This document shows positions 26,666-42,039 of a stretch of DNA of 56,106 bases, piece by piece; the stretch's first letter is position 1; every line of letters begins with the position of its first letter. Where the stretch lies: positions 1 to 56,106 of the forward strand of contig CANQIO010000008.1 in NCBI GenBank assembly GCA_947624065.1. The letters run 5' to 3'. Under the pieces are notes generated by a model. That model was given only the letters and a program-made list of their open reading frames with translations. It had not been told where the DNA came from and did no database searches. Origin of the DNA: an uncultured Oscillospiraceae bacterium. Its GTDB lineage: Bacteria; Bacillota; Clostridia; Oscillospirales; Oscillospiraceae. Both the position numbers and the translations under genes were made by a program.

Positions 26666-26712
26666 ACGATATTGGATGTTCATAATTATAGTAAGGTGAT
26701 ATTCGTATCCCT

Positions 26713-29451
26713 ATGAGGTCGCCCATGGGTCTTTCCTCTTCCCGAAAAAACCGCATATCGTCCGTCCTGGGGGTCTGTCTGGCCGCCTGCGGCCTGACGC
26801 TGGCGCTGCTGGCGGGGGTATACGCCCTGCGGGGCGTGTGGCCCTTCGGCGCGGACAATGTGGCCTATGTGGATGCCGCCCAGTTCTATGTCCCCCCTCT
26901 CTATAAGCTGTGGGACGTGCTCCACGGCGAGATGTCCATGGCCGTGGACTGGTCCGCCGGCCTGGCGGAGAACGCCGGCGCCACCTGGCGGTCGGTGCTG
27001 AGCCCCTCCAGCTGGGTGTTCCTGTTGGTGAGCCGGGACCACGTGCTGGAGGGCCTGAGCCTGTATCTGGCCGTGAAGATGGCCTTCATCTCCCTGGCGG
27101 CGGCGCTGGCGCTTTGCCTGCGCTTCCCGGCGCTCAGCGGCCGCTGGAAGGCGCTGCTGGCGGTGGTCTACACCTATTCCGGCTTTGTGCTGCAGTATTA
27201 TTCCAACTTCTCCTGGCTCACGGTGGCGGCGGCGTTCCCGCTGCTGCTGTACGGTCTGGAGCTGCTGCTGCGGGAGGGCCGGTGCGCGCCCTATGTGCTG
27301 GCCTACGGCTATTTTCTCTACTGCGGCACCTACTACGCTTACATGGCGGTCATATACATACTGCTGTTCTCCGCCGGATATATCTGCCTGCTGCTGCCCA
27401 GGGAAGAGCGGGGCGACCGGGCCCTCCGTCTCGGGGCCGGCACCCTGGCAGCCCTGGGGCTGACCGCCTGCTTCTGGGTGGCGTCCGCCTCGGGCATCGC
27501 CGTCTCCTCCCGGTTCCAGAGCAACATGGACTCGGGCCTCTACTCCGGCGCCACCACCTGGAGCCTGCCCAACATCCGCCATACCGCGCTGATGCTGCTG
27601 GGCATGAGCCCGGTGATGGCCATCCTTCTGCGGGCGCTGGGCGCCCAGCGGCGGCTGCCCAAGGCCGAGCGCCCCGCCCGGCGGCGGGTGATCTGGTTCT
27701 TCCTCTACATGCTGGCGGTGTTCGCCATCCCCATGGTATTCACCAACATCGACACGGTGTGGCATTTCGGCCAGTACAACTTCTTCCCCATGCGCTACGG
27801 CTACATGCTCCCGGCCACCCTCATCGCCGGAGCGGCGCTGGCGCTGGATGAGCCCCGCCGCGACACGGCGGGCAAGTCCCCCCAGCGGTGGCTGCTCCTG
27901 GTCCCGGTCCTGGCCTGGCTCCTGTCCCGGTTCCTGCCCATCCTGACGGCGGCCTACCAGGAATACGGCTCCGTGTTCCTCCCGGCCATGGGCGGCAACG
28001 CCATGCTCGGCTGGGCCGCCGCCTATATCCTGACGGGCGTCGCCTTTACGGCGCTGTACCATATCCTGCTGCGGCAGAACGCCAGGATCGCCGTCCTGAC
28101 CATGGGGGCGGTGATGCTCCTGCAGGTGGGCGTGGACGCTCTCGGCTTCATCGCGCCTGACGACGACCACACCTATACCCACGAATACGATCCCGCCTAC
28201 ATCGAGACGGCGGACCAGCTCTACGGATATTTCTCCGGCCAGGACATCGCCCCCCTGTCCCGGACCAAGAACGTGGACGGCAGTCTGAGCGCCGGCTATC
28301 CCGACCTGGCGGGCGTCAGCGCGGTGTCCAGCGTGGACTCCGGCAACTCCGCGGCCCGGCTGGGGATCTACCGGGAGCTGGGCTATACGGTGAACTATTT
28401 CCGCATCCTGGACACCGGCGGCACGGTCTTTTCCGACATGCTGCTGGGCGTGGACCGGGTGCTGAGCACGCTTCCGGTGGACGAGGATCTCTACGCGCCC
28501 GTGGACACCGCCGCGGGTCTGACCGTGGCCGCCTGCCGCTATCCGGGGGTCCTGGGCCTGCAATATCCAGCCGGCGCCCTGGATCTGGAGGACTACCTCA
28601 GTTATGACAGTCTGGCGGACCGGCTCAACTGCCTTTACCGGGCCTTTACCGGCACGGACGGCGCCGTCGCCCGAACCCTGTCGCCGGACATGACCGCGGC
28701 CGGGGATGGGATGCAGACCTATCGCCTCACCTGTACGCTGGAGGGGCCGGCCTTCCTCTATCTCGCCGCCGATGGGGTGCTCATGGACATCACCGCCGGG
28801 GGCCGGGATATAGCCGTGCCCACCTACCTGAACCTGCAAAACACCGTCTATCCGGCGGCCTTCAACTCCAACCTGCTCTCTCTGGGCCTGTTCCCGGCGG
28901 GAGAGGCAGAGATCACCTTTTCCTCGGCGCAGGATATGACCGGCAAGGTGACCCTGCTGGCGCTGGACAAGGCCGCCCTGGACGGCTTTGCCGCCGCCGC
29001 GCGGCGGGCCGGGAGCATAGCCGTGGCCTATGAGGACGACGGCCTGACCCTCACCGTCACGGCGGACGGCCCCGGCCAGATCCTGTTCCTGCCCGTCACC
29101 GCCAATGGCTGGCAGTGCACGGTGAACGGGGAGCGGACCGCCCTCGAGTATCCCCTCGCCACCTTCCTCGGCGTGCCCCTGCAGGAGGGGGAGAACACCG
29201 TGCGCATCTGGCGGCCCGTCCGGGCCGTGCGGACCGGCATAGGGCTCTGGATCACCCTGCTCTCCCTGGCGCTGTGCGCTGGGTGGCTCCTGCTCCGCCG
29301 GCGGACCGGCGGCCGGCCCATGGTCCTGCCCCGGCCGGTATATGCCGTCGCGCTGGCACTGTTTTACGCCGCAGCGGCAGTCTGCGTCGGCCTTGTCTAT
29401 ATCGCCCCAGCGGTGATGCTCATCACCCGCGGCACCGTCGTCGGCTTCTGA
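26713..29451 (+). CDS. YfhO-family membrane glycosyltransferase-like protein (first copy)
   Basis: 912-residue polytopic protein. An N-terminal helix is followed by a loop with acidic residues (FGADNVAYVDAAQFYVP), then about ten more helices up to residue 490. A large extracellular domain (about 490-850) and two C-terminal helices complete it. This is the GT-C-like YfhO layout; in Bacillus subtilis YfhO completes lipoteichoic-acid glycosylation with CsbB and GtcA. ATG 26713 is listed; ATG 26725 with GAGG seven bases upstream is an equally good start. It leads the surface-polymer arm and pairs conceptually with the GtrB/CsbB-type enzymes downstream. Confidence 0.8.
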   Translation: MRSPMGLSSSRKNRISSVLGVCLAACGLTLALLAGVYALRGVWPFGADNVAYVDAAQFYVPPLYKLWDVLHGEMSMAVDWSAGLAENAGATWRSVLSPSSWVFLLVSRDHVLEGLSLYLAVKMAFISLAAALALCLRFPALSGRWKALLAVVYTYSGFVLQYYSNFSWLTVAAAFPLLLYGLELLLREGRCAPYVLAYGYFLYCGTYYAYMAVIYILLFSAGYICLLLPREERGDRALRLGAGTLAALGLTACFWVASASGIAVSSRFQSNMDSGLYSGATTWSLPNIRHTALMLLGMSPVMAILLRALGAQRRLPKAERPARRRVIWFFLYMLAVFAIPMVFTNIDTVWHFGQYNFFPMRYGYMLPATLIAGAALALDEPRRDTAGKSPQRWLLLVPVLAWLLSRFLPILTAAYQEYGSVFLPAMGGNAMLGWAAAYILTGVAFTALYHILLRQNARIAVLTMGAVMLLQVGVDALGFIAPDDDHTYTHEYDPAYIETADQLYGYFSGQDIAPLSRTKNVDGSLSAGYPDLAGVSAVSSVDSGNSAARLGIYRELGYTVNYFRILDTGGTVFSDMLLGVDRVLSTLPVDEDLYAPVDTAAGLTVAACRYPGVLGLQYPAGALDLEDYLSYDSLADRLNCLYRAFTGTDGAVARTLSPDMTAAGDGMQTYRLTCTLEGPAFLYLAADGVLMDITAGGRDIAVPTYLNLQNTVYPAAFNSNLLSLGLFPAGEAEITFSSAQDMTGKVTLLALDKAALDGFAAAARRAGSIAVAYEDDGLTLTVTADGPGQILFLPVTANGWQCTVNGERTALEYPLATFLGVPLQEGENTVRIWRPVRAVRTGIGLWITLLSLALCAGWLLLRRRTGGRPMVLPRPVYAVALALFYAAAAVCVGLVYIAPAVMLITRGTVVGF

Positions 29452-29487
29452 CCGGGCCGGCGGACCCTTTTTTCGGAGGAACGACTT

Positions 29488-30627
29488 ATGACCACCATTC
29501 CGTTCAACACGCCCCCTTACTGCGGCCGGGAGGACGCCTATGTGCTGGAGGCCATCCACTCCCACAAGATCTGCGGCGACGGGGCCTTCTCAAAGAAATG
29601 CCACGCCTGGCTGGAGGAGCGCACCGGCGCCGCCAGGGCTTTCCTCACCACCAGCGGCACCCACGCTCTGGATATGGCGGCGCTGCTGTGCGAGCTGAAA
29701 GCTGGCGACGAGGTGATCCTGCCCTCCTTCACCTTCTCCTCCACGGCCAACGCCTTCGTGCTGGCCGGGGCCACCCCCGTGTTCGTGGACATCCGGCCAG
29801 ACACCATGAACATCGACGAAAACTGCATCGAGGACGCCATCACCGACCGGACAAGGGTCATCTGCGTGATGCACTATGCCGGGGTAGCCTGCGAGATGGA
29901 TACCATTCTGGACATCGCCCGGCGGCACAGTCTGCTGGTGGTGGAGGACGCCGCCCAGGCCGTCATGGCCACCTATAAGGGCCGCCCTCTGGGGAACGTG
30001 GGCGACTATGGCTGCTACAGCTTCCATGAGACGAAAAACTACTCCATGGGCGAGGGCGGCGCCATCCTGCTGCACCGGGACAACCCCCGGGCGGAGATCA
30101 TCCGGGAGAAGGGCACCAACCGGGCCCGTCTGCTCCGCGGCCAGGTGGACAAGTACACCTGGGAGGACCTGGGCTCCAGCTATCTGCCCAGCGAGCTGAA
30201 CGCGGCCTACCTCTGGGGACAGCTGGAGATGGCGGACGAGATCAATGCCGCCCGGCTGCACAGCTGGCAGCTCTACCGGGAGGGCCTCGCGCCCCTGAAG
30301 GAGGAGGGACTCATCGACTGGCAGGCCATCCCCGACGGCTGCGTCCACAACGGCCATATGTTTTATATCAAGGCGCGGGACGTCGCCGAGCGTACCGCCC
30401 TGATCGCCCATCTGCGCGCCCAGGGGGTGCAGTCCGTGTTCCACTATGTGCCCCTTCATTCCGCCGGCGCCGGTCTGCGCTTTGGCCGGTTCCACGGCGA
30501 GGACCGCTATACCACCCGGGAGAGCGAGCGGCTGCTCCGTCTGCCCATGTATTACGGGCTGACGGACAGCGCGGTGGAACAGGCCGTGGACGCGGTCACC
30601 TCCTTCTACCGGGGAGGCCGTCCATGA
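29488..30627 (+). CDS. wecE: dTDP-4-amino-4,6-dideoxy-sugar transaminase, WecE/RffA type
   Basis: 379-residue PLP-dependent DegT/DnrJ/EryC1/StrS aminotransferase. Recognisably close to enterobacterial WecE along its whole length: the GDEVILPSFTFSSTANAFVL block, the PDTMNIDE and HYAGVACEMDTI stretches, VVEDAAQAVM, and the PLP lysine K183 in FHETKNYS. WecE converts dTDP-4-keto-6-deoxyglucose to dTDP-4-amino-4,6-dideoxygalactose using glutamate. The keto-sugar suppliers RmlA/RmlB are not in the window. ATG 29488 follows GGAGGA. Overlaps the next gene by 4 bp. Confidence 0.92.
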   Translation: MTTIPFNTPPYCGREDAYVLEAIHSHKICGDGAFSKKCHAWLEERTGAARAFLTTSGTHALDMAALLCELKAGDEVILPSFTFSSTANAFVLAGATPVFVDIRPDTMNIDENCIEDAITDRTRVICVMHYAGVACEMDTILDIARRHSLLVVEDAAQAVMATYKGRPLGNVGDYGCYSFHETKNYSMGEGGAILLHRDNPRAEIIREKGTNRARLLRGQVDKYTWEDLGSSYLPSELNAAYLWGQLEMADEINAARLHSWQLYREGLAPLKEEGLIDWQAIPDGCVHNGHMFYIKARDVAERTALIAHLRAQGVQSVFHYVPLHSAGAGLRFGRFHGEDRYTTRESERLLRLPMYYGLTDSAVEQAVDAVTSFYRGGRP

Positions 30628-31967
30628 GCGAAGCGTCCTCCGCCCGCTCCTTCCTGCGCCGCAAGGGGCTCGCGCTGCTCTCGGCGGCGGTGCTCTTCGC
30701 GCTGACATACTGGGTCGTGTTCAACTTCCGGTCCGGGAGCAGCGACTACCTTGAGCACCTGGTGTGGGCCACGCTCATGACCGGTCAGGACATGGTCGCC
30801 GCTTTCCGCACCGGGCAGGAGCGGCTGTGGCATATCTGCGTGCAGCTGGTGCTCATGCTGGGGGTGGACAACATCTGGTCGGCCGCCGCCCTGGTGACCG
30901 CCGCCGCCAACGCCGCCGCCTATCTGCTGGTCTTTCTCTGCTGGGACAAGGCCCTGCCGAAGTCGACGCCCCGGTGGCTTTTGGCCGCGCTCATGCTGGC
31001 GGTCTTTCTGGCCGGGAGCCTCACCCTTCCGGGGCACAGCTTTTACGCGGACCGGGACACGGTGAACACCTGGCACAACCCCACCAACATCATGGTGCGG
31101 CCCTTTGCCGCGGCGGTATTCTATATGACCGTGCGCATCTACGGCCGCCGCCGGGACCGGCGCGCGCTCTCCCCCGATCCGGCGGGAGCCGGCAGCGGAG
31201 GCTTTGCTTTCTCCGGCGGCTTTTGGCATCAGTTCCGCGAGCCGGTGTTCACCCGGTCGGAGCTGATCCTCTATCCGCTGTGCCTCTTTCTGGGCGTGTA
31301 TGCCAAGCCCTCGTTCCTGCAGTTTTTCGCTCCGGCCATCTTCCTGTTCCTGCTGGCGGACGTGTTCCGGACCAGGGGGATGCTGCTGCCCTTCTGCGTC
31401 AAGCTGGCGCTGGCGTTCCTCCCGGCGGTCGTCGTTCTTTCGCTCCAGTACTACCGGTTTTTCGGGGCCAGGATCGGCCTGGCTGCGGCCTCCACGGCGG
31501 TCACGGCGGCCGCGGGAGAGGAAGCCGCCCGGTCCGGTCTGGTCGCTTACTTCATCGCCCCCTCCTTCTCCGGTGTCGGCGATTTTCTCGCGCAGCTGGC
31601 CAAGTCCCTCATCCGGGTCCTCTATCCCTGCGCCTTCCCGCTGTTCGTCCTGTTCGCCGCGCCGCCCCGCCTGCGCAGCGCGTCCGCCCGGCTGGGCTTT
31701 CTCTGTATGGCGGCGGGCCGGCTGGAGCAGATGTGTCTGCATGAGACCGGCTCCCGCGCCTCCCACGGCAACCTCGCCTGGGGATACTATCTGTCGATAT
31801 GGCTTCTGTGGACCGTCGCCATGGGAAAATTCGTCCAGCTGCTGCGGGACAAGAGCCGCGCCGGAGCACTGGTCCGCTGGGGCGGCGGCGCGCTGCTGGC
31901 GTGGCATCTGGTCTGCGGCGTGTGCTATCTTGTCCGCATCCTGCAAACAGCGCAGTTTTATTTCTGA
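30624..31967 (+). CDS. Polytopic membrane protein of unknown family, possible polymerase or GT-C enzyme
   Basis: 447 residues, about ten hydrophobic segments. I do not recognise the family. A short N-terminal cytoplasmic part and helix are followed by an extracellular loop with SSDYLEHLVWA, reminiscent of the acidic first loop of GT-C enzymes, and a later HSFYADRDTVNTWHNPTNIMVRP block with many polar residues. A hydrophilic loop of about 45 residues near 170-215 is cytoplasmic by charge. Embedded between the transaminase (ATGA overlap) and the ATP-grasp genes, where a Wzy-like polymerase or a sugar transferase would be expected. Confidence 0.6.
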   Translation: MSEASSARSFLRRKGLALLSAAVLFALTYWVVFNFRSGSSDYLEHLVWATLMTGQDMVAAFRTGQERLWHICVQLVLMLGVDNIWSAAALVTAAANAAAYLLVFLCWDKALPKSTPRWLLAALMLAVFLAGSLTLPGHSFYADRDTVNTWHNPTNIMVRPFAAAVFYMTVRIYGRRRDRRALSPDPAGAGSGGFAFSGGFWHQFREPVFTRSELILYPLCLFLGVYAKPSFLQFFAPAIFLFLLADVFRTRGMLLPFCVKLALAFLPAVVVLSLQYYRFFGARIGLAAASTAVTAAAGEEAARSGLVAYFIAPSFSGVGDFLAQLAKSLIRVLYPCAFPLFVLFAAPPRLRSASARLGFLCMAAGRLEQMCLHETGSRASHGNLAWGYYLSIWLLWTVAMGKFVQLLRDKSRAGALVRWGGGALLAWHLVCGVCYLVRILQTAQFYF

Positions 31968-31979
31968 CCGGGAGACATC

Positions 31980-33092
31980 ATGAAAAAGATCGCGATCATC
32001 GGCGCCAACGCCTTTCAGGACCCCCTCATCCGCAAAGCGAAGGACATGGGCTTTGAGACCCACGTGTTCGCCTGGGAGGCGAGGGACGTGGGAGAGCGCA
32101 CCGCCGACGTGTTCCACCCCATCAGCATCACGGAAAAAGAGGCCATCTGGGACGTGTGCCGCCGGGAGGGCGTGACCGCCTGCTGCTCCATCGGCTCGGA
32201 TCTGGCGGTGCATACCGTCAACTATGTCCAGCGGCGGCTGGGCAACCCCTGCAACAGCGAGCGCACCGACCTCATCGCCACCAACAAATTCGCCATGCGC
32301 CAGGCTCTGCGGGAAGCGGGCGTGGACTGCCCCGCCTTTCTCCGCGTGGACGCCGTGCCCGCGCCGGAGGCTCTGGCCGGCATGACCTGGCCGCTGATCG
32401 TCAAGCCCACGGACCGCTCCGGCAGCCGGGGCATCTTCAAGGTGGAGAGCTATGACGCCCTGGCCGCCGCCGTGCCCCAGGCCATGGCCCAATCCTTCGA
32501 GAAGCGGGCCATCATCGAGGAGTTCATCGACGGGCCTGAGTACAGCTGCGAGAGCATCTCCTTTGCCGGGGAGCACCACATCCTGGCTCTGACGAAGAAA
32601 TACACCACCGGCGCGCCCCACTTCATCGAGACCGGCCACACCGAGCCCTCGGACATCCCCGCGGACCGGGTCCCGGCCGTCTCCGGGCAGGTCAAGGCCG
32701 CTCTGGACGCGCTGCTCATCCGCTGCGGCGCCAGCCACGCGGAGTTCCGGCTCGCCCCCGACGGCCGGGCCCACATCATCGAGGTGGGCGCCCGGATGGG
32801 CGGGGACTGCATCGGCTCGGACCTGGTGTATCTGTCCACCGGCATGGACTATATGGCCATGGTCATCGACACGGCCTGCGGCAAGGCGCCGGATCTGACC
32901 GTGAAGCGGCCGCCCTGCCGGGCGGATATCCGCTTCATCTTCACGGAGGCGGACCTGGCCGCCATGGAACAGGCAAAGCGCGCCGCGCCGGACAGCGTCT
33001 GGCGCTGGGACTACGACGGCCATGCCGGCGGCGGCGTCACCGACAGCGCCAGCCGCCACGGTTACTGGATCACAAAAGGAGCACCCCTATGA
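31980..33092 (+). CDS. ATP-grasp ligase 1 of the surface-polymer locus
   Basis: 370-residue stand-alone ATP-grasp enzyme. An N-terminal Rossmann-like preATP-grasp domain (KKIAIIGANAFQDPLI) precedes the ATP-binding lysine in PLIVKPTDRSGSRGI and the EEFIDGPEYSCES loop. Metal ligands occur in HAEFRLAPDGRAHIIEVGARMGG. The family forms amide or peptide bonds through acyl-phosphates. In this context it most plausibly attaches an amino acid to a sugar amine or carboxyl (inference). Overlaps the second ATP-grasp gene by 4 bp. Confidence 0.82.
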   Translation: MKKIAIIGANAFQDPLIRKAKDMGFETHVFAWEARDVGERTADVFHPISITEKEAIWDVCRREGVTACCSIGSDLAVHTVNYVQRRLGNPCNSERTDLIATNKFAMRQALREAGVDCPAFLRVDAVPAPEALAGMTWPLIVKPTDRSGSRGIFKVESYDALAAAVPQAMAQSFEKRAIIEEFIDGPEYSCESISFAGEHHILALTKKYTTGAPHFIETGHTEPSDIPADRVPAVSGQVKAALDALLIRCGASHAEFRLAPDGRAHIIEVGARMGGDCIGSDLVYLSTGMDYMAMVIDTACGKAPDLTVKRPPCRADIRFIFTEADLAAMEQAKRAAPDSVWRWDYDGHAGGGVTDSASRHGYWITKGAPL

Positions 33093-34348
33093 GTCTTGAC
33101 GGAAAACGGCTGCTGCTGCTGGGCGGCTCCAACAGCACGGCGGACATCGTCCGCTTCGCCCGGGAGAACGGCGTCACCCTGATCGCCACCGCCCCGGCCC
33201 GGTTCGGCAAAACGCCACTGAAGGAGATCGCGGACGAGAGCTATGACGCGGACGCGGTGGACGAGCAGGCGCTGGCCCGGCTCATCCGGGAAAAGCGCGT
33301 CGACGGCATTTTCCCCGGCAACAACGAGGACGTGATGCCCCACGCCATCGCCGCGGCGGAGCTGGCCGGCCTGCCCATCTATTGCAGCGGCCCCATGTGG
33401 GACGCCTGCGCCAACAAGGCCAAGTTCAAGCAGATGTGCCGCCAGGCGGGCATCCCCGTGGCGGGGACCTATGATCTGGCCGTCACCGCCCCGGAGGACA
33501 TCCCCTATCCGGTGGTCGTGAAACCCGCGGATAGCTGCGGCAGCCAGGGCTTCTCCATCTGCCGGGACGCGGCGGCCCTGCTGCCGGCGGTGGACCGGGC
33601 GCTGCCCTTCTCCCGCACCGGCACCGTGCTCATCGAGGACTATATCCCCTACGACTCCTCCATCATCCACTATACCCTGTCCGGGGGGGAGGCCCTGTTC
33701 TGCGGCATCTCCGACAAGCGCTCCATGCTCCTGGGCGCGGACAGCGGCTCCGTCATGGCCCTGCAGCAGTTCCCCTCGGCCAGCACGGAGACATACCTGG
33801 CCTCTCTGGACGAAAAGGTCCGGGCCATGTTCCGCCAAAACGGCATGCATGACGGTCCGGTGTGGATCGAGGCCTTCAACGACCGCGGCCGGTTCATCTT
33901 CAACGAGATGGGCTACCGCTTCGGCGGGTCCATGACCTATCATCCCGTCCGGTATTTTTACGGGGTGGACCAGCTGGAGTGCATGCTCCGCTATGCCCTG
34001 GGAGAGCATCCCGGTCTGCGGGAGCACACCGGCCTCATCCGCCGGGACCGGCGGCCCGGCCGGCGGTACGCGATCCTGCCGCTGCACATCCGCCCCGGCG
34101 TCATCACGGCCATCCGGGGGCAGGACGCGGTGGAGCGGATGGAGGACGTCTACGCCTATGTGCCCATCCACCGGGTCGGCGACACCATCCGGGCCACCGG
34201 CACGGTGAGCCAGGTATTCTGCTATCTGCACCTGCTGTACGACGACATGGCCGGCCTGGCCGCCGCGGTGGACCGGATCGGCCGGACCCTTCACGCCGAG
34301 GACACGGCTGGGGATCAGATGATCTTCCAGCTGTACCGTTTTGCCTGA
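33089..34348 (+). CDS. ATP-grasp ligase 2 of the surface-polymer locus
   Basis: 419 residues, longer than the preceding ligase and only distantly similar. preATP-grasp start KRLLLLGGSNSTADIV, ATP-grasp lysine in PVVVKPADSCGSQGF, IEDYIPYDSS loop, metal ligand region WIEAFNDRGRFIFNEMGYRFGG (broken here at its centre by a short hairpin). The C-terminal 100 residues form an additional domain. Same expected chemistry as ligase 1; two consecutive ligases would suit a two-step acylation or dipeptide. ATG 33089 is preceded by AAAAGGAG. Confidence 0.82.
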   Translation: MSLDGKRLLLLGGSNSTADIVRFARENGVTLIATAPARFGKTPLKEIADESYDADAVDEQALARLIREKRVDGIFPGNNEDVMPHAIAAAELAGLPIYCSGPMWDACANKAKFKQMCRQAGIPVAGTYDLAVTAPEDIPYPVVVKPADSCGSQGFSICRDAAALLPAVDRALPFSRTGTVLIEDYIPYDSSIIHYTLSGGEALFCGISDKRSMLLGADSGSVMALQQFPSASTETYLASLDEKVRAMFRQNGMHDGPVWIEAFNDRGRFIFNEMGYRFGGSMTYHPVRYFYGVDQLECMLRYALGEHPGLREHTGLIRRDRRPGRRYAILPLHIRPGVITAIRGQDAVERMEDVYAYVPIHRVGDTIRATGTVSQVFCYLHLLYDDMAGLAAAVDRIGRTLHAEDTAGDQMIFQLYRFA

Positions 34349-34362
34349 AAAGGAGCGTTGAC

Positions 34363-35436
34363 ATGACAAACGAGATGTACATCAAATACCTGTCCCAGGA
34401 GGACCAGCTCCGGGCCGGATGCTTTGACATCCCCCGCGCCATGGACGTGGTGGAGAAGGTGCTGGCGGCTTACGCCAACGGCCGGGTGCTCTATCCCGAC
34501 AAGACCGTCCAGATCTTCGACGAGGCCATCCAGAGCCGCATCAACATCCTGCCGGCCACGCTGCTGGACGAGCAGGTCTGCGGCGCCAAGTGGATCTCCG
34601 TGTTCCCGGCCAACCCCCAGCGGTTCGGCCTGCAGAATCAATCGGCAGTCATCCTGCTCAGCAGCCTGCGGACCGGCCACCCCATCGCCCTGATCGAGGC
34701 CATGCTCTGCTCCAGCATCCGCACGGCCTGCGTCAGCGCCGTGGCGGCCAAATATCTGGCCCGGCCGGACAGCGCCGAGATCGGCCTGCTGGGCGCCGGC
34801 GAGATGGCCCGGATGCACTTTGTGGCCCTCAAAAGCGCGCTGCCCCAGCTGCGTGTCTGCCGGGTGGCGTCCCGGACCGACGCCACGGAACAGGCTTTCC
34901 TGGACCACATCGCGCCGCTTTATCCCGACGTGCAGTTCGTTCCCTGCCACGGGGATTATGAGAGGGCGGCCGTGGGCGCGGACGTGCTGGTCACGGCCAT
35001 CAGCGGCCAGGACCCGGTGCTGCGGGGCGCCTGGTGCAAGAAGGGCGCTTTCTACACCCACGTGGGCGGCCGGGAGGACGACGACGAGACCGTCTTTCGG
35101 GCGGACAAGATCGTCTGCGACAACTGGTACCACCTTAAGCACCGGGGCAGCCCCACCCTCACCCGCCTGTACCAGGCCGGCAGGCTCCAGGACGGGGACA
35201 TCTACGGCGATCTGGCGGACATCGTGACCGGGAAGCTGCCGGGCCGGCAGAGCCCGGAGGAGTTCATCTATTTCAACGCGGTGGGCCTGTCCTATGTGGA
35301 CGTGGCCATGGGCTGGGACTTTTTCCAGCGGGCGGAGAAATACGCCGCGGTGCTGCCCCTGCAGCGGGCGGGCATCTTTGACCACGCGCTGGAGAGCGCC
35401 GGCACGCCCGGCGTGTTCCGGCTGAAAGAGTCCTGA
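34363..35436 (+). CDS. Ornithine cyclodeaminase/mu-crystallin family dehydrogenase, SbnB-like
   Basis: 357 residues. The NAD(P) site G144-A-G146 in LLGAGEMARMHF and the substrate-side ALIEAMLCSSIRTA stretch mark the family. N-terminal features (KWISVFPANPQ, ILLSSLRTGHP) resemble SbnB, which oxidatively cleaves N-(2-amino-2-carboxyethyl)-glutamate to give 2,3-diaminopropionate. No SbnA partner is present, so ornithine cyclodeaminase, an imino-acid reductase or an amino-acid dehydrogenase remain possible. It lies between ATP-grasp and glycosyltransferase genes, which suggests it supplies the amino acid that is ligated. ATG 34363 follows AAGGAG. Confidence 0.8.
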   Translation: MTNEMYIKYLSQEDQLRAGCFDIPRAMDVVEKVLAAYANGRVLYPDKTVQIFDEAIQSRINILPATLLDEQVCGAKWISVFPANPQRFGLQNQSAVILLSSLRTGHPIALIEAMLCSSIRTACVSAVAAKYLARPDSAEIGLLGAGEMARMHFVALKSALPQLRVCRVASRTDATEQAFLDHIAPLYPDVQFVPCHGDYERAAVGADVLVTAISGQDPVLRGAWCKKGAFYTHVGGREDDDETVFRADKIVCDNWYHLKHRGSPTLTRLYQAGRLQDGDIYGDLADIVTGKLPGRQSPEEFIYFNAVGLSYVDVAMGWDFFQRAEKYAAVLPLQRAGIFDHALESAGTPGVFRLKES

Positions 35437-35451
35437 GCGGGAGGTAGACCT

Positions 35452-36399
35452 ATGCTCGTATCCATCTGCATCCCCTGCTACCGCAGCGCCAAGACCCTCC
35501 CCTCGGTGGTGGAGGAGATCCGGCGGGAATTCGCGGCGCGGGAGGGCTATGACTATCAGCTCGTGCTGGTGAACGACGGCTCCCCGGACGACACCTACGA
35601 CGTCATCATGGAGCTGTGCCGGGAGGACCGGAACATCATCGGCGTGGATCTTTCCCGCAACTACGGCCAGGCGTCCGCCAAGATGGCCGCCCTGGCCTAT
35701 GCCGACGGCGACGCGGTCGTCTACATGGACGACGACGGCCAGCATCCCGCCGCGGGCATCTTCCCCATGCTGGACAAGCTGGCGGAGGGATATGACATCG
35801 TATACGCCCGCTTCCCCGCCAAGCATCACTCCTGGTTCAAGCGCTTCACCAGCAAGCTCTACCAGAAGGTCTCCGAGTGGATCGGCAACAAGCCCAAGGG
35901 CATCTCCGTGTCCTCCTTCACCGCCTGGAGCCGGATGGCGGCGGACGCCGTGCGGCGGTATAAGAGCCCCTTCCCCGCGGCGGGGCTGTACCTGAACAAG
36001 ATCACCGGCCGGGTGGCCAACGTGGACATGGAGCACCGGGACCGGCTGGCCGGCGAGAGCGGCTATACCCTCGGAAAGCTCATCGGCCTGACCATGACGG
36101 CCCTGACCAACTTCTCCATCATCCCCCTTCGCCTGGCCTCCGTGGTCGGGGTCGCGACTGCCGTGGTCGGCTTCGTCACGGCCGTGGTCATGGTCATCCG
36201 GAAGCTGATCCACCCCAACATCGCCGCGGGCTTCACCACCAGCATCGCCACCCAGCTGTTCATCGGCGGCGTCATCATGACGATCCTGGGCATTCTGGGC
36301 GAGTATGTGGGCCGCATCTATATGACCGTCAGCGACCTGCCCCAGTACACTGTCCGCCGGACGGAAAACGTCCCTGAGAAAAAGGAGAAGCAGCCATGA
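35452..36399 (+). CDS. GT2 polyprenyl-phosphate glycosyltransferase, GtrB/CsbB/ArnC-like (plus arm)
   Basis: 315 residues. Cytoplasmic GT2 catalytic domain with VNDGSPDDT and the metal-binding D93-D95 in YMDDDGQHP, then two C-terminal membrane helices (about 225-245 and 260-285). This is the DPM1/GtrB type that loads a sugar on undecaprenyl phosphate for use outside the membrane. CsbB of Bacillus, a partner of YfhO, has the same layout. Starts after GGGAGG; ATGA overlap with the sugar-transfer ATP-grasp gene. Confidence 0.88.
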   Translation: MLVSICIPCYRSAKTLPSVVEEIRREFAAREGYDYQLVLVNDGSPDDTYDVIMELCREDRNIIGVDLSRNYGQASAKMAALAYADGDAVVYMDDDGQHPAAGIFPMLDKLAEGYDIVYARFPAKHHSWFKRFTSKLYQKVSEWIGNKPKGISVSSFTAWSRMAADAVRRYKSPFPAAGLYLNKITGRVANVDMEHRDRLAGESGYTLGKLIGLTMTALTNFSIIPLRLASVVGVATAVVGFVTAVVMVIRKLIHPNIAAGFTTSIATQLFIGGVIMTILGILGEYVGRIYMTVSDLPQYTVRRTENVPEKKEKQP

Positions 36400-37376
36400 A
36401 AGACATATTCCGGGAGGCCACGCTGAAAGGGCTCTTTGCCAGCTCCTTCGGCTTTTTCCGGGAGCAGATGCGCCGGCAGTACAGCGGTCTGCGGCTGGCC
36501 GGCGTGTGGATCAGCATGTTCTGGTGCGTGCTGCGCCACGGCTCCAGCCCCGCCGAGTATGCCCAGCTGAATTTCGACAAAAAAAGCGACCGGGAGCGGG
36601 CCCGGTACTTCACCATGTTCCGCTTCGAGCGGTTCATCAAAAAGGCCAACACTGGCGACAAGCAGCTGTTCATCAACAAAGCCGCCTTCAACGAGCGCTT
36701 CGCTTCCTATCTGAACCGGGATTGGCTGGACGTGTCCAAGGCCACCCTGGAGCAGTTCACCGACTTCATCCGCGCCCACGGCCAGGTGATGATCAAGGCA
36801 CCCGATCTCTCCTGCGGCAAGGGCATCTCCCGCTACACCTACGACGCGGCGGACGACATGGCCGCCCTGTACGAGAACAGCCGGGACATGCTTCTTGAGC
36901 AGGTGGTGGCCCAGCACGCGGAGCTGGCTGCCTTCAACCCCGGCAGCACCAACGTGCCCCGGCTGAACACCATGGTGGACAGCCAGGGCCAGGTACACGT
37001 TTTCTCCGCCTTCCTGCGCACCGGCGCGGGCCAGGCCGTGGTGGACAACATGGGCGCCGGCGGCATGGCCGCCCACATCGACGTGGACACCGGCGTCGTC
37101 ACCACCCCCGCCATCGACATGGACCGGCGGGAGTACATCGCCCACCCCGTCACAGGCAAGGTCTTTCTGGGCTTCACCGTCCCCCACTGGGAGCAGGCCA
37201 AGGCCGCGGTCATCGCCGCCGCCAAGGAGGTCCCCGGCATGCGGTACATCGGCTGGGACGTGGCCGTGACGGACGACGGCGTGTGCCTTATCGAGGGCAA
37301 CGACCGGGCGGACATCTGCGTGCGCCAGTTTGTGGACCGCCGCGGCTGGTACAAAGAGCTGACGGAGATGCTGTGA
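36396..37376 (+). CDS. Sugar-transfer-associated ATP-grasp protein (third ATP-grasp)
   Basis: 326 residues. ATPgrasp_ST-type (hexapeptide/sugar-transfer-associated) protein: basic N-terminal region, ATP-binding VMIKAPDLSCGKGI, EQVVAQHAELAAFNPGSTNVPR with a strongly conserved-looking Pro-Gly-Ser-Thr-Asn-Val core, then GMRYIGWDVAVTDDGVCLIEGND with the metal ligands. These are common in exopolysaccharide loci; the reaction is not established. Coupled to the upstream GtrB-like gene. Confidence 0.82.
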   Translation: MKDIFREATLKGLFASSFGFFREQMRRQYSGLRLAGVWISMFWCVLRHGSSPAEYAQLNFDKKSDRERARYFTMFRFERFIKKANTGDKQLFINKAAFNERFASYLNRDWLDVSKATLEQFTDFIRAHGQVMIKAPDLSCGKGISRYTYDAADDMAALYENSRDMLLEQVVAQHAELAAFNPGSTNVPRLNTMVDSQGQVHVFSAFLRTGAGQAVVDNMGAGGMAAHIDVDTGVVTTPAIDMDRREYIAHPVTGKVFLGFTVPHWEQAKAAVIAAAKEVPGMRYIGWDVAVTDDGVCLIEGNDRADICVRQFVDRRGWYKELTEML

Positions 37377-37434
37377 GCCGCCCTCTCCCCATCCTCCCCA
37401 GCGCTGAAAACTTTGACCGCGAGGACCACCGGCT

Positions 37435-39006
37435 ATGACGCGCGCACAGAATTCCTTCTTCAACTTCATATCCAGCGTGGGAGCGTCGATCCTGATGATC
37501 GTGCTGAATTTCATCACCCGCGCTGTGTTCATCCGGGTCCTGGACGTGAGCTACCAGGGCCTGGAAGGGCTGTTCTCCAGCATCCTGTCGGTGCTGAGCC
37601 TGACGGAGCTGGGCTTTGGCTCCGCCATTACTTTCAAGCTCTACCGGCCCATCGAGGAGGACGACCGGCCCCGGCTGCGGGTGTTGATGAAGCTGTACCG
37701 GCAGGTGTATTTCGTCATCGGCTGCGTCATCGCGGCGCTGGGCCTGGCGCTGATCCCTTTTTTGCCCAAGCTGGTGAAAAACTACGGCCGCCTGGCCGAG
37801 CTGCACCTCAACGGCGGGCTCATCTTCCTGATCTACCTGGCCAACAGCGTCTCCTCCTATTGGTTCTTCGCCTATAAAAACGCCTTCGTCGGCGCCACCC
37901 AGAAGAGCTATGTGCTCACCGTCTCCGGCTATCTGGTCTCCCTGGCCAACAGCGTCACCCAGATCTGCGTGCTGGTTTTCACCCGCGATTTCGTGCTGTA
38001 TATCGCCATACAGGTGATCTTCACCATCCTGCGGAACATCCTTTACGCCGTCATCTGCGACCGGCGGCACCCCTATTTGAAGGAAAAGACCACCGAGCGT
38101 GTCTCCCGGGAGGAGCTGCGGGGCTTTTTCTCCGACTGTTCGGCCCTGCTCCTGTACCGCATCGCCAACGTGGCCCTGGACGGCTCCGACAACATCGTCC
38201 TGTCCACCATGCTGGGGCTGGAGAGCAACGGGCTCTATTACAGCTATCTGACCGTCAAGACCTCCATCCGCACGCTTCTCAACAGCTTCTTCAACTCCCT
38301 GCAGGCGTCCCTGGGAAGTCTGTATACCACGGGCAACCTGGACTGGTCCCGGCTGATGTTCCGGGTGGTGAATCTGGCCACGGTGTGCCTGTACGGCGTG
38401 TTCTCCATCGGCATCGCCGTGTTGCTGGACGACTTTGTGGCCATCGTCTGGGGCCCGGACATGGTGGTCACCAGCTGGACCGTGGCCGGACGGACGGTGG
38501 CGACGCCGCTGGCCCTCTTCATCGGCATCGAGTTTTACGTCACCGGCCGGGCCTATTTTCTCAGCACCTTCCGCACCGCCATGGGCCTGTTCCGCCAGAT
38601 GCGCTTCCGCCCGGTCATCAACGTGACCGTGAATCTGGCGGTGTCGGTCCTGATGGTGCCCCGGATGGGCATCGCCGGGTGCGTGGTGGGCACCATCGCG
38701 GCGTATCTGAGCTCCAACCTGCTGTTCGACCCGCCGCTGATCTATAAAAAAGTGCTGGGCCTGCCTCTTCGCCGGTATTTTCTCACCAACCTCGCCTACG
38801 ACGCCGTCACCGCCGGGGCCCTGGCGGCCAGCTGGTGGCTGTGCTCCCTCATCGCCCTGGGGGGCTGGCTGGGCTTTCTCGTCCACGGGTGCGTATGCGT
38901 GGGCGTGACCGGCGGGATATTCCTGCTGTGCTACTGCCGGACGGAGGAGCTGCGCTACATCCTCCAGGCCGGGAAACAGCTGCTCCGCCGGAGCGGCCGG
39001 AAATGA
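37435..39006 (+). CDS. Wzx-like lipid-linked oligosaccharide flippase
   Basis: 523 residues with about 12-14 hydrophobic segments, MOP superfamily (polysaccharide synthase/MATE-like). The start NSFFNFISSVGASILMIVLN and the block LDVSYQGLEGLFSSILSVLSLTELGFGSAI are typical of Firmicutes flippases in glycan loci. It should translocate the undecaprenyl-linked repeat unit. ATG 37435 has GAGGA nine bases ahead; a 58-bp gap separates it from the ATP-grasp gene. Confidence 0.87.
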   Translation: MTRAQNSFFNFISSVGASILMIVLNFITRAVFIRVLDVSYQGLEGLFSSILSVLSLTELGFGSAITFKLYRPIEEDDRPRLRVLMKLYRQVYFVIGCVIAALGLALIPFLPKLVKNYGRLAELHLNGGLIFLIYLANSVSSYWFFAYKNAFVGATQKSYVLTVSGYLVSLANSVTQICVLVFTRDFVLYIAIQVIFTILRNILYAVICDRRHPYLKEKTTERVSREELRGFFSDCSALLLYRIANVALDGSDNIVLSTMLGLESNGLYYSYLTVKTSIRTLLNSFFNSLQASLGSLYTTGNLDWSRLMFRVVNLATVCLYGVFSIGIAVLLDDFVAIVWGPDMVVTSWTVAGRTVATPLALFIGIEFYVTGRAYFLSTFRTAMGLFRQMRFRPVINVTVNLAVSVLMVPRMGIAGCVVGTIAAYLSSNLLFDPPLIYKKVLGLPLRRYFLTNLAYDAVTAGALAASWWLCSLIALGGWLGFLVHGCVCVGVTGGIFLLCYCRTEELRYILQAGKQLLRRSGRK

Positions 39007-39025
39007 GTTTTCGGGAGAGTGACCC

Positions 39026-40048
39026 ATGACGCCTTTTTTCTCCATCGTCATCCCCATCTATAAAGCCGAGACCTATCTGCGCCAGTGCGTGGACAGCATC
39101 CTCACCCAGAGCTGCGGGGACTTTGAGCTGATCCTGGTGGAGGACGGCTCCCCGGACAGCTCCGGGGCCATCTGCGACGAATACGCCGCCCGGGACAGCC
39201 GGGTGCTCGCCGTCCATCAGGCCAACGCCGGCCCCACTCCCGCCCGCCGCAACGGTCTGGGCCGTGCCCGGGGGCAGTATGTGTGCTTCGCGGACGCGGA
39301 CGACTGGGTAGTGCCCCAATGGCTGGAGACGCTCCGGGACCACATCCGCGGAAACGGCGAGCCGGACATGGTGCTGTTCGACTTCTTCCAGGTGGAGGGA
39401 GACGAGCATCTGCCGCCGCTGGCCGCCCCGGAGGGATACTACGACAAGGCCCGCCTGGAGCGGGAGATGTACCCCCGGATGCTCTGCGATACCTCCCGCC
39501 AGCCCTTCGGCAGCGCCCAGCTGGTGCCGGGCTACCTGTGGTCCAAAGCGTTCCGGCGGGAGCTGGTGGCGGACCATTTTCTCGCCGACGACCGGATCAC
39601 CGTGTTCGAGGACGTGGCCATGGTCTACGAGTGCCTGTATCACGCTGATTCAGCCTATGTGACCCACCAGCGGCTGTACGCCTACCGGTACCTCCCCCAG
39701 TCCAATCTGCGCCATTACCGGCCGGGATATTTCCGGGAGATGACCGCCCTGGCAGACTATCTCAACGCCCGTCTGACGGCGGCGGACCCGGTCTTTGCCC
39801 CACAGGTGAACGCCTTTTGCGTCCGGCGGCTGATCAACGGCATCGCCGGGGAGCTGGCCGAGCGCGGCTCCGTCGCCGCCGCGGCCAAAAACGCGGCCGC
39901 CGTGCTGGACGAGACCGGTTACGCCCGGCGGCTCTCCCCCCGCGGGATGCCCGCCGCCATGGGGCTGTTCCTGCAGATGGTAAAGCTGCGGCTGTACCGG
40001 ACCGCCACCGCTTTCGTCAAGCTGCGGATGGGCCCGGATAACGTCTGA
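39026..40048 (+). CDS. GT2 glycosyltransferase A (EpsJ/CpsJ-like)
   Basis: 340 residues. N-terminal GT-A domain with SIVIPIYKAE, LVEDGSPDSSG, the second motif FADADDWV (metal ligands) and KAFRREL. The C-terminal 130 residues are helical and unique. Lacks membrane helices, so a peripheral cytoplasmic enzyme that adds a sugar to the lipid-linked unit. Notably RRN replaces the more common SARN in the NAGPTPARRNG stretch. ATG 39026 follows GGGAGAG. Confidence 0.85.
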   Translation: MTPFFSIVIPIYKAETYLRQCVDSILTQSCGDFELILVEDGSPDSSGAICDEYAARDSRVLAVHQANAGPTPARRNGLGRARGQYVCFADADDWVVPQWLETLRDHIRGNGEPDMVLFDFFQVEGDEHLPPLAAPEGYYDKARLEREMYPRMLCDTSRQPFGSAQLVPGYLWSKAFRRELVADHFLADDRITVFEDVAMVYECLYHADSAYVTHQRLYAYRYLPQSNLRHYRPGYFREMTALADYLNARLTAADPVFAPQVNAFCVRRLINGIAGELAERGSVAAAAKNAAAVLDETGYARRLSPRGMPAAMGLFLQMVKLRLYRTATAFVKLRMGPDNV

Positions 40049-40064
40049 TGAGGGGGAGCGCGCC

Positions 40065-41102
40065 ATGAGACCTGTCATATCCGTCGTGATCCCCGTGTAT
40101 CAGGTGGAGCCCTATCTGCGCCAGTGTCTGGACAGCGTGCTCCGCCAGACGTTCCGGGACCTGGAGATCATCGCCGTGGACGACGGCTCGCCAGACAGCT
40201 GCGGCGCCATCTGCGAGGAATACGCCGCCCGGGACGATCGTGTCCGCGTCATCCATAAGCCCAACGGCGGCCTGGTCTCCGCCTGGAAAGCGGGCGTGGA
40301 GGCGTCCACCGCCCCCTATATCGGCTTCGTGGACGGGGACGACTGGCTGGACCCAGGTTTTTACCAGGACCTCTACGCCGCCCTCACCGCCTCCGGCGCG
40401 GATGTGGTGGTGGGCGAGCGCAGCGAGGACCGGGAGGGCTATCCCCCCGTGGTATCCCGCCGGGAAGAGACCGTGACCTATGAGGGACCGGAGGGCATCC
40501 GGCAGCTGCTGGAGAAGTTTTACACCGCCTTCCTCCACACCGACCGGGCCACCCTCCCCATGACCTACAGCCGGTGCGACAAGCTCTACCGCCGGGAGCT
40601 GATCCTGGCCAACTGGAAGTATTACAACGAGAACGTATCCCTGGACGAGGACCGGATCGACAACAGCGCCATCCTGGCCGACTGCAAAAAGGTCCTGGTG
40701 CTCAGCGGCACCGGCAAGTACCACTATCGCATCGCCGGCGGCACCATGAGCCATGTCTATGACGAGCGGCAGGTCAACACCCTGGCGCAGCTGCATGCCT
40801 CCCTGGTCGCCGTGGCCCGTGACAAGGGCATCGACATGGACCTGGTGCTCATCTATACCGGCGGGGCCGCCTACCGGCGCGTCTACGCCACCGCCCGGCA
40901 GAGGGGCGTCCCCCTCTCCACCCGCCGGGACCGGGTGCGGCATATCCTGTCCATGACGCCCGCCGGGGCACTGGGGCGCTATGCCGCCGCCAGGGGCGGG
41001 ATGTTCGCCAAGACGTTCTGCGCCATGCTGGAGCGCGGCTGGGTCATGCCCTGCGTGCTCCTGGTGGCCGCCCACAGCCTGACCCAGCGCGAGGCCCTGT
41101 GA
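40065..41102 (+). CDS. GT2 glycosyltransferase B
   Basis: 345 residues, paralogue of the preceding gene: SVVIPVYQVEPYLRQCLDSVL, VDDGSPDSCG, KPNGGLVSAWKAG, FVDGDDWLDP, CDKLYRRE and the general-base-like LDEDRI. The C-terminal region differs. Last gene of the plus arm; a strong terminator follows. Sugar specificity is unknown. Confidence 0.85.
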   Translation: MRPVISVVIPVYQVEPYLRQCLDSVLRQTFRDLEIIAVDDGSPDSCGAICEEYAARDDRVRVIHKPNGGLVSAWKAGVEASTAPYIGFVDGDDWLDPGFYQDLYAALTASGADVVVGERSEDREGYPPVVSRREETVTYEGPEGIRQLLEKFYTAFLHTDRATLPMTYSRCDKLYRRELILANWKYYNENVSLDEDRIDNSAILADCKKVLVLSGTGKYHYRIAGGTMSHVYDERQVNTLAQLHASLVAVARDKGIDMDLVLIYTGGAAYRRVYATARQRGVPLSTRRDRVRHILSMTPAGALGRYAAARGGMFAKTFCAMLERGWVMPCVLLVAAHSLTQREAL

Positions 41103-41122
41103 ATCGGCCCGCCAAAAAAGCC

Positions 41123-41166
41123 AAAGTCCGCACACCTTCCACCCGGAAGATGTGCGGACTTTTTTC
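41123..41166. terminator. Bidirectional terminator between the converging arms
   Basis: AAAGTCCGCACA / TGTGCGGACTTT with an inner CTTCC / GGAAG hairpin, flanked by A-tract and T-tract, so it can end both the plus arm and the minus arm. Confidence 0.9.
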
Positions 41167-41186
41167 TTCGCTTGCGGCTCTTGCCC

Positions 41187-42026: not shown

Positions 42027-42039
42027 GCTCCGTCCCTCC

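What the first reader, a model, noticed from the sequence alone, without database searches (positions are those of the whole stretch)
29488..37376. Candidate undescribed pathway: amino-acid-decorated amino-sugar glycan made by tandem ATP-grasp ligases
A WecE-type transaminase creates a sugar amine. Next to it are two different ATP-grasp ligases, an SbnB/ornithine-cyclodeaminase-like dehydrogenase that could supply an unusual amino acid (diaminopropionate, proline or similar), a polyprenyl-phosphate glycosyltransferase and a third, sugar-transfer-associated ATP-grasp. All are tightly spaced and co-directional. The parsimonious reading is a repeat unit whose 4-amino-6-deoxy sugar is acylated by one or two amino acids. 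I know of no described system with this exact gene set.
Basis: inference. Interest (0 to 1): 0.8.

Follow-up and report, generated by a model that had tools for sequence, protein, structure and literature searches.

The report
Swappable amino-acid cassettes decorating an aminosugar
A gut bacterium carries a gene cluster that probably hangs amino acids on an amino sugar of its surface coat, and its relatives swap the genes thought to attach them like interchangeable parts, which would give strains different coats.

Summary
In detail: WecE, two different ATP-grasp ligases, an SbnB-like dehydrogenase, an ArnC/PgfS-like glycosyltransferase and an ATPgrasp_ST protein lie co-directionally at 29488-37376. 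A 447-aa membrane protein between wecE and the first ligase was left out. Comparison across the genus (35 genomes) supports amino-acylation of a 4-amino-4,6-dideoxy sugar and adds something new. Among the families searched for, all 23 complete loci have one slot-1 gene (ATP-grasp grasp1 in 17, WbqC in 6) and one slot-2 set (grasp2+dehydrogenase 8, another ATP-grasp+hexapeptide protein 4, another ATP-grasp 11) between wecE and the glycosyltransferase; five of six combinations occur. Against a close relative the window is about 90% identical on both sides of a clean replacement of grasp2-dehydrogenase-glycosyltransferase-ATPgrasp_ST, so the 'six-gene' set is at least two separately exchanged units. 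The chemistry has a precedent: in C. difficile type B flagellin an ATP-grasp and an ornithine-cyclodeaminase-like protein are needed for a peptidyl-Fuc3N cap (published). The window's enzymes are only distantly related to those, and no flagellin gene was found in the 8 genomes with its module. Verdict: new variant of a known kind; the two-slot layout is the new part. Substrates are inferred.

The parts
26713..29451 (+). yfhO1: YfhO-type GT-C membrane protein, candidate for transferring the lipid-linked sugar outside the cell
   Evidence: PF09586 1.6e-53; seen in 17 of 23 loci of the genus within the stretches fetched (row count)
29488..30627 (+). wecE: dTDP-4-amino-4,6-dideoxygalactose (Fuc4N) transaminase
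   Evidence: TIGR02379 and NF008687 above cut-off; 61% identical to an E. coli rffA product
30624..31967 (+).
   Evidence: about 9 hydrophobic segments, no Pfam or NCBIfam hit
31980..33092 (+). grasp1: slot-1 ATP-grasp ligase, L-amino acid ligase type
   Evidence: PF13535 1.8e-21; LAL BL00235 (3vot) 2.4e-26; absent with WbqC in its place in 6 of 23 loci
33089..34348 (+). grasp2: slot-2 ATP-grasp ligase
34363..35436 (+). ocd: SbnB/alanine-dehydrogenase-like oxidoreductase, candidate supplier of the slot-2 acyl group
   Evidence: PF02423 1.7e-51; 4m54 (SbnB by recall) 6.7e-39; with grasp2 in 8 of 8 loci of the genus that have either
35452..36399 (+). gt2A: ArnC/PgfS-like polyprenyl-phosphate glycosyltransferase
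   Evidence: PF00535, NF047588 169 bits and NF007986 166 bits, both below cut-off; two C-terminal hydrophobic segments
36396..37376 (+). ATPgrasp_ST: sugar-transfer-associated ATP-grasp, role unknown
   Evidence: PF14397 2.3e-43; no match in the PDB by sequence
33074..37420 (+). exchanged cassette (grasp2-ocd-gt2A-ATPgrasp_ST), replaced as a block in genome G026
   Evidence: blastn: flanks 26697-33073 at 90.1% and 37421-43306 at 88.8%, with only a 71% match inside gt2A (35469-36347) between them
37435..39006 (+). 523-aa membrane protein, Wzx-flippase-like by appearance (recalled, no Pfam hit)
   Evidence: about 9 hydrophobic segments; 95% identical in G026 just outside the exchanged block
39026..41102 (+). 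two GT2 glycosyltransferases (39026-40048 and 40065-41102) that may build the glycan
   Evidence: PF00535 1.4e-30 and 5.4e-38

Best explanation
RmlA and RmlB (on another contig of this genome) and WecE make dTDP-4-amino-4,6-dideoxygalactose. Its free 4-amine is then acylated in two steps. Slot 1 (grasp1 here, WbqC in some relatives) attaches the first residue. Slot 2 (grasp2 here) attaches a second, terminal residue that the SbnB-like dehydrogenase supplies, perhaps an unusual or N-carboxyalkylated (opine-like) amino acid. The ArnC/PgfS-like GT2 (gt2A) loads the finished aminoacyl sugar onto undecaprenyl phosphate, much as ArnC takes an N-formylated amino sugar (recalled). The lipid-linked sugar is flipped, and a GT-C membrane protein (YfhO1 in this genome) puts it on a surface glycan. 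Relatives exchange slot 1 and slot 2 separately while the sugar-making and loading functions stay, so the cap would vary between strains. Shown: gene content, order, homology, co-occurrence and exchange. Inferred: substrates, order of acylation, loading after acylation, nature of the cap. The role of ATPgrasp_ST is not explained.
For: WecE far above family cut-offs; rmlB beside wecE in 13 of 23 loci of the genus, rmlA and rmlB together on contig C52 of this genome. grasp1 is closest to an L-amino acid ligase by sequence, grasp2 by phmmer and by predicted fold. 23 of 23 complete loci hold one slot-1 and one slot-2 set, of the families I searched for, between wecE and gt2A (of the 26 wecE genomes, three were dropped: G019 and G008 run off contigs, G023 is another place). 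Clean slot-2 exchange, window against G026; slot-1 exchanges, G010/G002 and G001/G003. gt2A of the 8 dehydrogenase loci is one clade with support 100, whereas the wecE tree of the same 23 loci scatters them (minimum slot-2 changes 4 against 7). Operons with a wecE-like gene, a gt2A-like gene and an ATP-grasp in that order in L043, L120 and L122 (names). Mutants of the C. difficile ATP-grasp and OCD genes lose the peptidyl-Fuc3N cap (PMC5207246, passages; structure in PMC5207245, abstract and passages).
Against: No substrate is shown for any enzyme. A profile of grasp2 and its relatives ranks a phosphoribosylglycinamide-synthetase-like protein (4dim) and carbamoyl-phosphate synthase above the L-amino acid ligase, and below the first row of the fold list the rows are ATP-grasp carboxylases and purine enzymes within 4 Z units. 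The dehydrogenase scores below every NCBIfam cut-off listed, so its product is unknown. gt2A lies next to slot 2, so their shared history may be linkage; moreover the four graspXa loci are not one clade on the gt2A tree. The trees were the quick method, no shuffled-label control was run, and chrA1, grasp1 and yfhO1 have fewer rows (19, 17, 17), so their counts (7, 6, 5) do not compare strictly. The dehydrogenase is only 23% identical to its counterpart in the C. difficile-like locus. gt2A is below the ArnC and PgfS cut-offs. WbqC as a substitute for grasp1 rests on exchange alone, and the exchanged pieces with WbqC are longer than WbqC and hold further sequence; across the class 5 of 16 WbqC places, two of them in one genome, had a DegT gene in the 1.5-kb flanks. 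ATPgrasp_ST was not seen in 4 of 23 loci (G034, G009, G012, G010; L196 ends soon after gt2A), and its model was too poor to use.
Confidence: 0.6

Rival explanations
1. The ligases act on another site: they amidate a carboxyl group of the glycan (a uronic acid) or add hydroxy or keto acids, and WecE merely makes a free or acetylated Fuc4N for the same polymer.
For: ATP-grasp_4 proteins have broad substrates and neither ligase reaches a curated equivalog cut-off. Hexapeptide proteins, possible acetyltransferases, accompany one slot-2 type.
Against: In 23 of 23 loci slot genes lie between wecE and gt2A. Other operons pair a WecE-like gene with an ATP-grasp. No acetyltransferase family was hit by the + strand ORFs scanned between 24660 and 41102.
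Confidence: 0.17
2. Polysaccharide-locus shuffling: ATP-grasp, aminotransferase and dehydrogenase genes are common in such loci and sit together without one shared pathway.
For: DegT and ATP-grasp genes co-occur in many surface loci (15 of 20 that I fetched), and these loci recombine often.
Against: One set per slot in 23 of 23, exchange borders at gene ends, dehydrogenase-type gt2A co-inherited with slot 2; the same DegT-grasp-grasp-OCD order in another phylum.
Confidence: 0.12
3. The cluster makes a small diffusible peptide or siderophore (an SbnB-like enzyme supplies diaminopropionate; ligases join amino acids) rather than a glycan.
For: Closest solved relatives are 4m54 (SbnB by recall) and stand-alone L-amino acid ligases.
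Against: No SbnA-type partner was hit among the module proteins scanned; the genes are embedded among WecE, a lipid-carrier-type GT2, YfhO and GT2s, with LicD and a CDP-glycerol-phosphotransferase-like gene on the other strand.
Confidence: 0.06

Closest known systems
C. difficile type B flagellin modification locus (CDR20291_0240-0247)
   Same: A sugar aminotransferase, an ATP-grasp and an OCD-family dehydrogenase together; published mutants of the latter two lose an amino-acid cap on a dideoxy-amino sugar (PMC5207245, PMC5207246; passages)
   Different: Fuc3N, flagellin, one ATP-grasp plus a FemAB protein; in a locus that I take for its counterpart the dehydrogenase is 23% identical and the ATP-grasp is nearer to other subfamilies; no flagellin found in 8 of 8 genomes with the window module
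ArnC/PgfS polyprenyl-phosphate sugar loading with GT-C transfer (Arn, Pgf, CsbB-YfhO; recalled)
   Same: GT2 with two C-terminal hydrophobic segments plus a YfhO-type protein; an N-acylated amino sugar is the ArnC substrate (recalled)
   Different: gt2A is below both equivalog cut-offs, and the amine is predicted to carry amino acids, not formate
L-amino acid ligases (BL00235, BacD, RizA)
   Same: Best solved relatives of grasp1 by sequence and of grasp2 by phmmer and fold
   Different: Those join free amino acids (recalled); here an amino sugar is the predicted first acceptor, and a profile search of grasp2 ranks other ATP-grasp enzymes first
Enterobacterial common antigen WecE pathway
   Same: WecE 61% identical to an E. 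coli rffA product; RmlA and RmlB present
   Different: No WecD-type acetyltransferase hit in the module; ligases would take its place
SbnA/SbnB diaminopropionate pathway
   Same: Dehydrogenase closest to 4m54 (SbnB by recall); aligns without the loop insertion that AlaDH, P2CR and 7rbp have
   Different: Below the SbnB cut-off (179 of 326.9 bits); no SbnA partner hit

Membership tests
WecE / RffA transaminase | Score above curated cut-offs of TIGR02379 and NF008687 | tested here: met
   581.7 (434.85) and 586.6 (375) bits
WecE / RffA transaminase | RmlA and RmlB in the genome to supply dTDP-4-keto-6-deoxyglucose | tested here: met
   both above cut-off on G000:C52
L-amino acid ligase (ATP-grasp) | ATP-grasp_4 domain with an L-amino acid ligase as closest solved relative (grasp1) | tested here: met
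   PF13535; 2.4e-26 to 3vot, first of 26
L-amino acid ligase (ATP-grasp) | The same for grasp2 | tested here: inconclusive
L-amino acid ligase (ATP-grasp) | Ligates an amino-acid carboxylate to an amine | not testable with these tools
   needs an enzyme assay
SbnB | Score above TIGR03944 cut-off (326.9) | tested here: not met
   179.2 bits: SbnB-like, not an SbnB
PgfS / ArnC polyprenyl-phosphate glycosyltransferase | Score above NF047588 (500) or NF007986 (529) | tested here: not met
   169.1 and 165.8 bits
PgfS / ArnC polyprenyl-phosphate glycosyltransferase | GT2 domain with two C-terminal membrane segments | tested here: met
   PF00535; hydrophobic segments 221-255 and 261-279 (hydropathy only)
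C. difficile type B flagellin peptidyl-glycan system | ATP-grasp, OCD-family protein and DegT aminotransferase in one locus | tested here: met
   window; counterpart loci
C. difficile type B flagellin peptidyl-glycan system | Linked to flagellin | tested here: not met
   PF00669 not found in 8 of 8 genomes with the module (73-96% complete, so absence is not certain)
C. difficile type B flagellin peptidyl-glycan system | FemAB acyltransferase beside the ATP-grasp | tested here: not met
   no FemAB hit among the window module proteins scanned; present in L177

The most novel reading that the evidence does not exclude
A combinatorial two-residue amino-acid 'code' on one constant sugar: relatives keep the Fuc4N-making and lipid-loading functions and swap, independently, the gene that writes the first residue and the ligase plus supplier that write the second, giving strain-specific peptidyl-sugar caps on a surface glycan. 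WbqC would then be a functional equivalent of an amino-acid ligase, and the SbnB-like enzyme an opine-type dehydrogenase that supplies the terminal residue, as the N-alkylated alanine of the C. difficile cap suggests.
Probability: 0.4. Interest if true: 0.78.

Novelty: new variant of a known kind. Interest (0 to 1): 0.62.

Why it matters
In 2016 the authors of PMC5207245 called a peptidyl cap on a bacterial glycan unique (passage), and the roles of its ATP-grasp and OCD-like enzymes were left open (PMC5207246, passage). Here nature has run an exchange experiment: 23 loci with five slot combinations on a constant sugar suggest which gene writes which residue, so each step can be tested one enzyme at a time. 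It also offers a testable role for WbqC. Strain-specific peptide-like caps on gut commensals would bear on phage, antibody and lectin recognition (inference).

Tried and rejected
Rejected: SbnB proper (179 of 326.9 bits), so no claim that diaminopropionate is made. Rejected: flagellin glycosylation for this genus. Rejected: direct orthology with the C. difficile-like enzymes (dehydrogenase 23%; ATP-grasp best matched by those of L120, L043 and L122).

Led nowhere: dehydrogenases 46-50% identical in other Clostridia stand beside genes that look, unscanned, like peptide transporters and unrelated enzymes; no ATP-grasp was hit in the neighbourhoods printed, so they give no substrate. The Acaryochloris plasmid hit has no annotated ligase nearby. 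ATPgrasp_ST: no PDB relative by sequence and a model with mean pLDDT 42, which I did not search. WbqC across the class: 14 of 391 genomes, 16 places, 5 of the 16 with a DegT gene in the short flanks, two of those in one genome: inconclusive. Paper searches listed no paper that I recognised, from titles and abstract starts, as describing this gene set (two listed none at all; 46 and 73 show only the first 15 of 39 and 5 of 507); two searches gave the C. difficile precedent; (WbqC) listed two papers, neither opened. Only open-licence papers are held.

Strand corrections: the + ORFs at 41172, 42442, 44310, 44833 and 45776 are read as shadows of - strand genes (LicD by homology with L017, CDP-glycerol-phosphotransferase-like, GT2, YdjC, GT2), so the + operon seems to end near 41102.
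Full report
WHAT IS THERE. The window is contig C8 (56,106 bases) of an incomplete genome (1.92 Mb, 75% complete). The nearest named records found are 'Lapin' (rabbit, my reading) Oscillospiraceae MAGs. Seven genes run on the + strand from 29488 to 37376: wecE, a 447-aa membrane protein, grasp1, grasp2, an SbnB/OCD-like dehydrogenase, an ArnC/PgfS-like GT2 (gt2A) and an ATPgrasp_ST protein. Upstream lies a YfhO-type protein, downstream a 523-aa membrane protein and two GT2 genes; beyond 41.1 kb a convergent - strand group holds GT2 genes, a CDP-glycerol-phosphotransferase-like gene and, by homology with L017, LicD.

THE SUGAR. WecE passes both curated cut-offs and is 61% identical to an E. coli rffA product. 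rmlA and rmlB lie side by side on another contig of this genome, and rmlB was seen beside wecE in 13 of 23 loci of the genus. dTDP-Fuc4N is therefore the expected product.

THE GENUS. wecE at E<=1e-120 is in 26 of 35 genomes of the genus; nine have none at that level. I compared these loci (fetched) and dropped three before counting: G019 and G008 run off their contigs, G023 is a different place. In the remaining 23 (tblastn with a set of chosen proteins, so a family not in the set would not show) there is one slot-1 gene (grasp1 17, WbqC PF08889 6) and one slot-2 set (grasp2+dehydrogenase 8; graspXa+hexapeptide protein 4; graspXb 11) between wecE and gt2A. Combinations: grasp1+grasp2/dehydrogenase 8, grasp1+Xa 2, grasp1+Xb 7, WbqC+Xa 2, WbqC+Xb 4, WbqC+grasp2/dehydrogenase 0. 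ATPgrasp_ST was seen after gt2A in 19 of 23 (not in G034, G009, G012, G010). A chromate-transporter flank seen in 19 of 23 (chrA1 row count) shows that most are the same chromosomal site.

THE EXCHANGE. Against G026 the window is 90.1% identical from 26697 to 33073 and 88.8% from 37421 to 43306; the block between, grasp2-dehydrogenase-gt2A-ATPgrasp_ST, is replaced by graspXa-hexapeptide protein-another gt2A-two ATPgrasp_ST genes. Slot 1 is exchanged in a similar way: G010 and G002 are collinear on both sides of grasp1/WbqC (78.5% and 85.7%), and so are G001 and G003 (80.2% and 77.9%); the pieces with WbqC are longer than WbqC alone (about 2.4 and 2.9 kb) and, in G003, hold a membrane protein too. 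In trees (quick method, no shuffled-label control), gt2A of the 8 dehydrogenase loci forms one clade with support 100, while the four graspXa loci are spread; the minimum number of slot-2 changes is 4 on gt2A and 7 on wecE (23 rows each), 7 on chrA1 (19), 6 on grasp1 (17) and 5 on yfhO1 (17). This fits a loading enzyme tuned to the dehydrogenase-type cap, but gt2A is also a neighbour of slot 2, so linkage alone could give it.

BEYOND THE GENUS. A Paludibacteraceae MAG has RmlB, a DegT whose best model is DesI (below cut-off), two ATP-grasps and a dehydrogenase 49% identical to the window's. B. finegoldii has DegT-ATP-grasp-ATP-grasp-epimerase. Of 20 Clostridia loci that I picked, mostly the strongest, 15 hold a DegT gene and 9 hold two ATP-grasp ORFs of at least 50 bits. 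L043, L120 and L122 hold a WecE-like gene, a gt2A-like GT2 and an ATP-grasp in that order; the last two are among those 20.

KNOWN PRECEDENT. In C. difficile type B flagellin the glycan ends in Fuc3N acylated by Gly-Ala-taurine, the alanine nitrogen being alkylated (PMC5207245, abstract and passages); mutants in the ATP-grasp (0245) and OCD-like (0246) genes keep only the core trisaccharide (PMC5207246, passages). I found what looks like this locus in an unnamed genus (L177-L179; ATP-grasp hit in 4 of 8 of its genomes). The alanine-taurine unit is chemically tauropine-like (my reading), which would suit an OCD-family enzyme acting as an opine-type dehydrogenase; the five rows shown do not contain the word tauropine. 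The window's enzymes are distant relatives, flagellin was not found in 8 of 8 genomes tested, and the sugar differs. So it works like that system, with a different gene set, sugar and target.

MECHANISM. Shown: genes, homology, order, co-occurrence, exchange. Inferred: WecE product; slot 1 acylates N-4; slot 2 adds a terminal residue supplied by the dehydrogenase; gt2A loads the decorated sugar on undecaprenyl phosphate; a GT-C protein transfers it to a surface glycan. Unexplained: ATPgrasp_ST, present once here, several times in some loci and unseen in four, and the 447-aa membrane protein.

VERDICT. The two-slot exchange is what makes it worth a specialist's time.

Noticed in passing
   Followed up: partly
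L043, L120 (and L122 by ORF layout): Operons with a WecE-like gene, gt2A-like GT2 and ATP-grasp are followed by an NMT1-type protein (L120 above cut-off, L043 just below; nitrate/taurine-type family, recalled) and in L043 by an ABC permease, an ATPase and a PMT-type GT-C: perhaps uptake of the cap's building block.
   Followed up: partly
L017:17417-18247 and - strand of the window near 41.2-42.3 kb: A LicD gene (PF04991, 8.1e-39 in L017; tblastn hit in the window) sits beside the locus, and several 720-800-aa membrane proteins upstream in relatives have weak choline-binding-repeat hits below cut-off: the polymer may also carry phosphocholine.
   Followed up: no
L184:12025-12735, L181:9794-10504: WbqC (PF08889) stands where others have an ATP-grasp in 6 of 23 loci, which suggests an acylation role for this family.
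   Followed up: partly
L022 (G086): A tandem ATP-grasp pair in the same family, beside an ORF that looks (unscanned) like a LysR regulator, without DegT or dehydrogenase hit in the fetched stretch.
   Followed up: no
window 50024-51322 (-): Sortase-domain protein downstream of the second YfhO gene (PF04203, 9.4e-08).
   Followed up: no
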